Source: Phyllobacterium bourgognense (GTDB taxonomy: Bacteria > Pseudomonadota > Alphaproteobacteria > Rhizobiales > Rhizobiaceae). From it: a DNA stretch of 64,000 nucleotides. The notes under the pieces were generated by a model. The model was not told where the DNA came from, did not search any database, and saw only the letters and a program-made list of their open reading frames with translations. Positions 3,616-25,396 of this stretch are shown here, in pieces (within the stretch, counting starts at the first letter, position 1; each line of letters starts with the position of its first letter). Where the stretch lies: contig NZ_QPJM01000001.1 of assembly GCF_003337575.1 (NCBI RefSeq), positions 62,001 to 126,000 of the forward strand, written 5' to 3'. The position numbers and the translations under genes were made by a program.

Positions 3616-3908
3616 TTGCCCACCGTTTCCGGAGTTAGAATTTCAGCATCCGAACCGGCCGTCAACATTCTTCTGTCTCAGCGAAACCGCCCACGCATGG
3701 CTGAAACCGATCTCCGTCAGATTCTAATCTTTGGAAGGAAAGCGTGGACCGGATGGGACAGGCGCTCGTCTGCCGTTTCGTTGGCCAGGACTGGAAACCG
3801 GAAAAACGTTCCTGTTCGCCTTGCCATCGCGTCCGGTTGACACGGCCATCACACTTTCCATGATGTCAACGGCACGACCAGAATATCGTTCCCAGCTTTT
3901 CCCTCGCG

Positions 3909-9301: not shown

Positions 9302-9378
9302 TGGCGCACCCGACAGGATTCGAACCTGTGACCTCTGCCTTCGGAGGGCAGCACTCTATCCAGCTGAGCTACGGGTGC
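9302..9378 (-). tRNA. tRNA-Arg (anticodon CCG), CCA encoded
   Basis: The minus strand folds as a complete tRNA. The acceptor stem GCACCCG pairs with CGGGTGC, followed by G73 and an encoded CCA. The D arm is GCTC/GAGT, the anticodon stem CTGCC/GGCAG encloses loop CTCCGAA, and the T arm is ACAGG-TTCGAAT-CCTGT. The anticodon CCG reads CGG (Arg). Confidence 0.96.
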
Positions 9379-24587: not shown

Positions 24588-25064
24588 TCACGCCGCGTGA
24601 CTATCCTCAACCTGCCTGGAACTTTCGCCAACGATAGTGTCGCCGGTACCGCCGATCGCAATCCGACGTGGCTTCATTTCCTCCGGAATCTCTTTCTTGA
24701 GTTCGATCACTAGTAATCCATTGTCGAGACGTGCATCGATAACTGTCACGTGGTCGGCAAGTTCGAAGCGGTGAACGAACGGCCGCAGTGCCAATCCGTG
24801 ATGAAGATACTGCAACTCCTCTTCGCCCGACTTGTCGCCCTTGACCACAAGCATGTTGGGCTCATGGGTGATCGACAGATCATCTTGCGCAAAACCGGCC
24901 ACAGCGATGATAACCCGGTATTTGTCTTCGCCGAGTTTGACGATGTCATAAGGTGGCCATTTGTCCGAACCCTGAGGCTGGGCAGAGTTTTCAAGCAGGT
25001 TGAAAATGCGGTCGAAACCGACGCTCGACCGGTAGAACGGGGAAAAATCGACGTTGCTTCTCAT
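24588..25064 (-). CDS. Small heat-shock protein, Hsp20/IbpA family
   Basis: A 158-residue alpha-crystallin-type chaperone that holds unfolded proteins in soluble oligomers. The N-terminus (MRSNVDFSPFYRSSVGFDRI) leads into the core domain from about residue 35 (PPYDIVKLGEDKYRVIIAVAG); the C-terminal core motif is RLDNGLLVIELKKEIPEE, and a short basic tail follows. Start ATG 25064 has a perfect AAGGAGG eight bases upstream. The frame continues upstream, but the leader folds as a ROSE-type RNA thermometer, so those codons are non-coding. It is probably heat-induced at the level of translation. Confidence 0.92.
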   Translation of the reverse strand: MRSNVDFSPFYRSSVGFDRIFNLLENSAQPQGSDKWPPYDIVKLGEDKYRVIIAVAGFAQDDLSITHEPNMLVVKGDKSGEEELQYLHHGLALRPFVHRFELADHVTVIDARLDNGLLVIELKKEIPEEMKPRRIAIGGTGDTIVGESSRQVEDSHAA

Positions 25065-25153
25065 AGCTAAGTCCTCCTTTGAGCAACATAGAAATGAGGC
25101 GCGCCAAGAAGCTTGGCGCTCCCTGACTGTCGGCCCACCAGTGCGACCGACGG
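25065..25153 (-). promoter_or_regulatory. ROSE-type RNA thermometer in the hsp20 leader
   Basis: The leader upstream of the start codon has the ROSE hallmark. A TTGCT box (25082-25086) can pair with the AGGA of the Shine-Dalgarno (25073-25078) leaving a bulged G, extended by CTATG pairing with CTTAG. A second, strong hairpin (GCGCCAAG-CTT-CTTGGCGC, 25101-25119) lies upstream, as in other ROSE leaders. ROSE elements control hsp20 genes in rhizobia by melting on heating. The distance to the predicted start point gives a leader of about 90 bases, which is usual. Confidence 0.8.
25101..25119 (-). promoter_or_regulatory. 5' hairpin of the hsp20 leader
   Basis: A perfect 8-bp stem with a 3-base loop, GCGCCAAG-CTT-CTTGGCGC on the transcript strand. 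It forms the upstream stem-loop of the proposed ROSE thermometer. Confidence 0.75.
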
Positions 25154-25159
25154 CGAAAA

Positions 25160-25188
25160 ATTTGGTTATCGTGTTGTACGCTGTCAAG
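25160..25188 (-). promoter_or_regulatory. Putative promoter of hsp20
   Basis: On the minus strand: CTTGAC (25183-25188), a 17-base spacer, then CCAAAT (25160-25165). The -35 box is the rhizobial sigma70 form. The -10 box is weak. It is not a clear RpoH-type promoter. Confidence 0.45.
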
Positions 25189-25396
25189 GTTTTTGGGAGG
25201 AACCAGAACAAAAAATATGCGGAGTGCCGATGACACACATCAGTCCGTCGTTCCACCCCGCCCTGATCCATGCGGGGACGAGGTGGACGAAGGTTAACAG
25301 GTCATCTCTATAGAGAGGAGTATACGGTTGGCGATGGCTTGAACTCCATCTACTCATTCGCTTGCCATTCTTGGCATCCCGACATATCTCTAGGTG

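What the first reader, a model, noticed from the sequence alone, without database searches (positions are those of the whole stretch)
25065..25188. ROSE-type RNA thermometer controls the hsp20 gene
The hsp20 leader has a TTGCT box that can pair with the AGGA of its Shine-Dalgarno with one bulged G, and flanking CTATG/CTTAG pairing, the mark of ROSE elements. A strong upstream 8-bp hairpin and a sigma70-like promoter giving a leader of about 90 bases fit too. Heat should melt the 3' hairpin and free the ribosome site.
Basis: partly seen in the sequence, partly recalled or inferred. Interest (0 to 1): 0.7.

Follow-up and report, generated by a model that had tools for sequence, protein, structure and literature searches.

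The report
Ordinary ROSE RNA thermometer before hsp20
The stretch just before a small heat-shock protein gene, in what is probably a Phyllobacterium genome, looks like a standard ROSE RNA thermometer, a fold in the messenger RNA that hides the ribosome landing site until it gets hot; it is a new copy of a well-known element.

Summary
The minus-strand leader of hsp20 (window 24588-25064) matches Rfam RF00435 (ROSE) over its whole length at 25058-25150, 70.4 bits against a gathering score of 45. In its 3' hairpin, TTGCT pairs imperfectly with the Shine-Dalgarno, one G bulged. Compensatory changes in 45 distinct relatives support the fold. The gene is a Pfam HSP20. Three of the genome's five hsp20 genes carry an above-threshold ROSE, as do 17 of 20 tested named relatives. 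Relatives place the genome in Phyllobacterium (inferred).

Refinements. (1) The conserved promoter, CTTGAC-N16-(A/C)CCAA.T, has a poor sigma70 -10 and looks somewhat more like RpoH; both heat-regulated transcription and translation are plausible. (2) The single-sequence fold prefers another register for the middle hairpin. (3) Nearest-neighbour folding opens the ribosome site mainly at 45-50 C, and Shine-Dalgarno pairing alone is no tighter than in shuffled leaders.

Temperature control was not measured. New member of a known kind; low interest.

The parts
24588..25064 (-). hsp20 coding sequence, 158 aa, small heat-shock protein; ATG at 25064
   Evidence: Pfam HSP20 PF00011, E = 1.7e-16, 60.6 bits against a cut-off of 20.8; relatives begin at the corresponding ATG
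25058..25150 (-). ROSE element (RF00435), full-length match, model positions 1-94
   Evidence: 70.4 bits, gathering score 45
25130..25150 (-). 5' hairpin of the ROSE element
   Evidence: pair list; 7 of its 8 pairs show changes on both sides among 45 distinct relatives, 96.7% of cells paired
25101..25119 (-). middle hairpin, 8 perfect pairs in the Rfam-like register (GCGCCAAG/CTTGGCGC); an overlapping register (GUCAGGGAGC/GCUUCUUGGC) is predicted to be more stable
   Evidence: sequence, pairs; energies
25060..25098 (-). 3' thermosensing hairpin containing TTGCT box, Shine-Dalgarno and start codon
   Evidence: 95.3% of cells paired
25082..25086 (-). TTGCT (ROSE U(U/C)GCU) anti-Shine-Dalgarno box, G 25084 bulged
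   Evidence: invariant in the 22-sequence alignment
25073..25078 (-). Shine-Dalgarno AGGAGG
25160..25188 (-). predicted promoter: CTTGAC (25188-25183), N16, ACCAAAT (25166-25160); RpoH-like or mixed RpoH/sigma70
   Evidence: pattern conserved in relatives; start site not mapped

Best explanation
It is a ROSE-family RNA thermometer in the 5' leader of an hsp20 gene of a Phyllobacterium-like bacterium. At normal growth temperature the 3' hairpin pairs the TTGCT box with the Shine-Dalgarno and encloses the start codon, so translation is low. Heat loosens this imperfect hairpin (U-U mismatches, U-G pairs, a bulged G) and lets ribosomes bind. Shown here: family membership by covariance model, covariation, position, and conservation in orthologues. 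Inferred from the known family: temperature-dependent opening and translational control. Also inferred: the promoter responds to RpoH, so that heat acts on transcription as well.
For: Full-length RF00435 hit, 70.4 bits. HSP20 gene immediately downstream. Own genome: 3 ROSE elements, each directly ahead of an HSP20 gene, of 5 HSP20 genes. 17 of 20 tested named relatives have an Rfam ROSE match ending at the hsp20 start, and 47 of 50 loci match a model built from 22 of them, 25 of 28 if the 22 used to build it are left out. Covariation beyond shuffles and slid controls. Predicted opening of the Shine-Dalgarno-to-ATG stretch from 30 to 50 C larger than in 1000 shuffles. U(U/C)GCU facing the Shine-Dalgarno is the stated family hallmark (PMC3669281, passages).
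Against: No expression data. Nearest-neighbour folding opens the site mainly at 45-50 C rather than 42 C (ATG unpaired 0.09 at 42 C, 0.48 at 50 C), and leaves 4 of 22 related elements (L003, L006, L010, L019) almost closed even at 50 C (at most 0.16 unpaired). Shine-Dalgarno pairing alone is no tighter than in shuffles. The covariation is concentrated in the 5' hairpin: 7 of 8 pairs there, 2 of 8 in the middle and 3 of 16 in the 3' hairpin, and that alignment was fitted to the structure.
Confidence: 0.95

Rival explanations
1. Heat induction of this gene is mainly transcriptional, through an RpoH-type promoter, and the ROSE fold is a relic or makes little difference.
For: CTTGA at -35 in 47 of 52 loci and CCA in the best -10 in 44 of 52 (the set includes close relatives and some duplicate records). 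Published RpoH1 consensus CTTGAA-N15-16-CCTATAT (PMC4843759, one passage). sHsp genes with ROSE were reported as rpoH-dependent in S. meliloti (PMC3989490, passages).
Against: The window promoter fits the RpoH1 -10 at only 4 of 7 positions. The RNA fold is kept by compensatory changes, which an inert leader would not need. The two controls are compatible.
Confidence: 0.04
2. The pairing is a chance feature of a GC-rich leader.
For: Shine-Dalgarno pairing alone is matched by 259 of 500 shuffled leaders.
Against: Rfam E = 1.5e-8 in 64 kb; covariation; total folding energy z = -3.06 against shuffles; opening with heat larger than in 1000 of 1000 shuffles.
Confidence: 0.01

Closest known systems
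ROSE element, Rfam RF00435
   Same: Full-length match, three-hairpin layout, UUGCU box facing the Shine-Dalgarno with a bulged G, directly ahead of hsp20
   Different: Ordinary sequence divergence; the predicted best fold of the middle hairpin uses an overlapping alternative register
ROSE elements of Mesorhizobium loti class A sHsp genes
   Same: A ROSE element downstream of the promoter of all class A sHsp genes, several copies per genome (PMC3989490, passages)
   Different: Another genus; in most Mesorhizobium copies examined here the Rfam-like middle-hairpin register is favoured
Short ROSE-like thermometers of Pseudomonas ibpA
   Same: U(U/C)GCU motif blocking the Shine-Dalgarno in the 3' hairpin (PMC3669281, passages)
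   Different: Those have two hairpins only; this one has three
RpoH (sigma32) promoters of alphaproteobacteria
   Same: CTTGA -35 and a CC-containing -10 (PMC4843759, one passage)
   Different: -35 is CTTGAC and the -10 matches CCTATAT at 4 of 7 positions, so assignment is open

Membership tests
ROSE (RF00435) | Covariance-model score above the gathering threshold | tested here: met
   70.4 bits against 45, model positions 1-94
ROSE (RF00435) | Located in the 5' leader of a small heat-shock protein gene, reaching the start codon | tested here: met
   PF00011 protein with ATG at 25064
ROSE (RF00435) | U(U/C)GCU box paired imperfectly with the Shine-Dalgarno in the 3' hairpin | tested here: met
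   UUGCU 25086-25082 with 25072-25075 side, G 25084 bulged; motif as defined in PMC3669281
ROSE (RF00435) | Two to four hairpins, fold conserved in relatives | tested here: met
   three helices, 93.7% of 1421 cells paired, 12 pairs with changes on both sides; hairpin range from PMC4166951, passages
ROSE (RF00435) | Rfam-like register of the middle hairpin | tested here: inconclusive
   at 30 C probability 0.12 for the Rfam-like register and 0.88 for the alternative in the window leader; one pair of this helix (columns 37/87) is unpaired in 33 of 42 sequences with letters
ROSE (RF00435) | Ribosome site opens at heat-shock temperature | tested here: inconclusive
   predicted opening mainly at 45-50 C; energy model only
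ROSE (RF00435) | Heat-induced translation | not testable with these tools
   needs a reporter assay
RpoH-dependent promoter | CTTGAA-N15-16-CCTATAT or close | tested here: inconclusive
   CTTGAC-N16-ACCAAAT, 4 of 7 in the -10
sigma70 promoter | TTGACA-N16-18-TATAAT | tested here: inconclusive
   -35 6 of 6, -10 at best 3 of 6; not listed by the consensus scan, which requires 4 of 6 in each hexamer

The most novel reading that the evidence does not exclude
The three ROSE elements of this genome form a graded set of thermometers, and the middle hairpin is a two-state element: in many Phyllobacterium copies a conserved GUCAGGGAGC/GCUUCUUGGC pairing competes with the Rfam-like GCGCCAAG/CUUGGCGC hairpin and is predicted to win at 30 C, giving way on heating and tuning how the thermosensing hairpin refolds. 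The window copy and L002 are predicted to open by 46-50 C while the third (L003) stays shut.
Probability: 0.1. Interest if true: 0.35.

Novelty: new member of a known kind. Interest (0 to 1): 0.12.

Why it matters
It adds an annotated ROSE thermometer (and two sister copies) in a Phyllobacterium-like genome, fixes the hsp20 start codon at 25064 against the longer open frame, and suggests combined transcriptional and translational heat control. None of this changes the understanding of the family. The competing middle-hairpin register is a small, testable detail.

Tried and rejected
Chance fold: rejected on the Rfam score and covariation, although Shine-Dalgarno pairing alone would not have rejected it. 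Pure sigma70 promoter: not favoured, since the -10 is poor and the conserved pattern is not TATAAT-like, but not excluded. ROSE ahead of the other two hsp20 genes of the genome: no Rfam ROSE match up to E = 10 in L023 or L024; L024 has a ROSE-like TCGCT facing AGGAGG by eye, and the home-made model gave only a weak hit elsewhere in that leader (16.5 bits, E = 0.57). Phage records: no match to the leader. Terminator or other regulatory RNA at the site: none found.

Selection of sequences: one search was given 20 of the 40 loci. Searches left out 12 of those 40 (L033-L041, L043, L060, L072), judged to be the same genomic places as loci already held under G handles, mostly from equal contig lengths. 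One search's three weakest matches (E 0.12-1) were dropped before the pair count by setting a limit of 1e-6. In one search, 5 of 47 sequences could not be scored because they lack the landmark, and 3 had neither register above 0.5.

Full report
What was claimed.

Check of the observation. The sequence shows the parts named. The start codon is 25064-25062, the Shine-Dalgarno AGGAGG 25078-25073, the TTGCT box 25086-25082 with G 25084 bulged, CTATG/CTTAG pairing with one U-U mismatch, and an 8-pair hairpin at 25119-25101 (and the sequence). The downstream protein is HSP20 (PF00011, E = 1.7e-16). An open frame in the same phase begins at 25271 (227 aa), but the ROSE match, the Shine-Dalgarno and the starts of the relatives place the start at 25064.

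Identity. Rfam RF00435 matches 25058-25150 minus, full length, 70.4 bits, gathering score 45, E = 1.5e-8 for the window and it was the only match up to E = 1 in the surrounding 501 bases. Within the genome there are three above-threshold ROSE elements, each directly ahead of one of five HSP20 genes. In a sample of 59 genomes including this one, 14 have a match at E of 0.001 or less and 12 have one over the cut-off: this genome, 11 of 19 others of the genus, 1 of 15 others of the family and 1 of 24 others of the order (stricter filters, which can lose weak matches). None of 14 control genomes rings. Of the 22 matches listed, 19 are over the cut-off. Of 20 named relatives tested, 17 have ROSE ending at the hsp20 start, L068 has one elsewhere on the other strand, and L067 and L070 have none.

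Structure. A model built from 22 elements matched 47 of 50 loci, 25 of 28 if those used to build it are left out. On 45 distinct sequences, 93.7% of 1421 cells pair. 61 cells have changes on both sides, against a shuffled mean of 14.7 and 2-13 in slid controls, and the covariation score is 0.245 against 0.148 shuffled and at most 0.058 slid. Most of the covariation lies in the 5' hairpin (7 of 8 pairs); the middle has 2 of 8 and the 3' hairpin 3 of 16, where many pairs are nearly invariant. One middle pair (columns 37/87) is broken in 33 of 42 sequences with letters. The alignment was fitted to the structure, which leans towards it.

Predicted behaviour with temperature. The leader folds more stably than its shuffles (z = -3.06). 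Shine-Dalgarno unpaired fraction is 0.37 at 30 C, 0.43 at 42 C and 0.59 at 50 C; the start codon goes from 0.003 to 0.09 and 0.48. Shine-Dalgarno closure at 30 C is not special (259 of 500 shuffles at least as closed; 195 of 1000 for the stretch to ATG). The gain in openness from 30 to 50 C is larger than in each of 1000 shuffles. Predicted curves differ among copies: the window copy and L002 reach 0.58 and 0.52 at 50 C over the last AGGA to ATG, L003 only 0.14. Four of 22 elements stay at or below 0.16 at 50 C. Energy models lack the non-canonical pairs described for ROSE (PMC3669281, passages), so these temperatures are rough.

A wrinkle. The minimum-energy fold of the window leader does not use the 8-pair middle hairpin but an overlapping 10-pair one, GUCAGGGAGC/GCUUCUUGGC, favoured by 1.4-2.7 kcal/mol between 42 and 25 C. 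At 30 C the alternative is above 0.5 probability in 16 of 47 sequences, 14 of them from the genus of the window, including all three of its own copies; the Rfam-like form is above 0.5 in 23 of 47; 5 could not be scored and 3 had neither. Whether this matters is open.

Promoter. Of 52 loci examined (22 elements from G-handle genomes and 30 named loci, some of them duplicates of each other), 47 have CTTGA at the -35 place, 44 have CCA in the best -10, and only 6 have a -10 with four or more matches to TATAAT. The window has CTTGAC-N16-ACCAAAT: 4 of 7 to the RpoH1 -10 quoted in PMC4843759 (one passage) and at best 3 of 6 to sigma70. Chaperone genes of the same genome have similar sites by eye (groES loci L028 and L029, hsp20 loci L023 and L024). 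RpoH-like is therefore preferred but not proven. PMC3989490 (passages) states that sHsp genes with ROSE were rpoH-dependent in S. meliloti.

What is known. PMC3989490 (passages): all class A sHsp genes of Mesorhizobium loti have a ROSE element. PMC4166951 (passages): ROSE is probably the most abundant thermometer class, always with small heat-shock genes, over 40 found in alpha- and gammaproteobacteria. PMC11784457 (passages): ROSE elements in Rhizobium leguminosarum UPM791 sHsps. A search for ROSE, RNA thermometer and Phyllobacterium together found 0 papers, so this copy may not be described, but its kind is well known.

Verdict. Confirmed, ordinary, new member of a known family. Mechanism by family membership about 0.95; not measured here.

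Noticed in passing
window 3746-3852 (-): Rfam Atu_At1 (RF02496), Rhizobiales sRNA, 96.3 bits against 60.
   Followed up: no
window 9305-9378 (-): A tRNA gene by Rfam (69.2 bits).
   Followed up: no
L024 1340-1375 (G000:C6): A further hsp20 gene of the genome has TCGCT facing AGGAGG just before its ATG (1375), a ROSE-like core that no Rfam ROSE match covers.
   Followed up: partly
L020 1440-1597 and L021: Two related ROSE copies precede broken-off hsp20 frames (71 and 34 aa); in L020 the -35 abuts the ROSE element and the -10 appears to be missing. They look like decaying paralogues.
   Followed up: no
window 25101-25126 (-): Middle ROSE hairpin has two competing registers; the non-Rfam one is predicted to be more stable in 14 elements of this genus.
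   Followed up: partly
L028 and L029 (groES loci): Both groES genes of the genome have a CIRCE-like inverted repeat TTAGCACTC/GAGTGCTAA or close to it next to a CTTGA-type promoter, by eye (motif name recalled).
   Followed up: no
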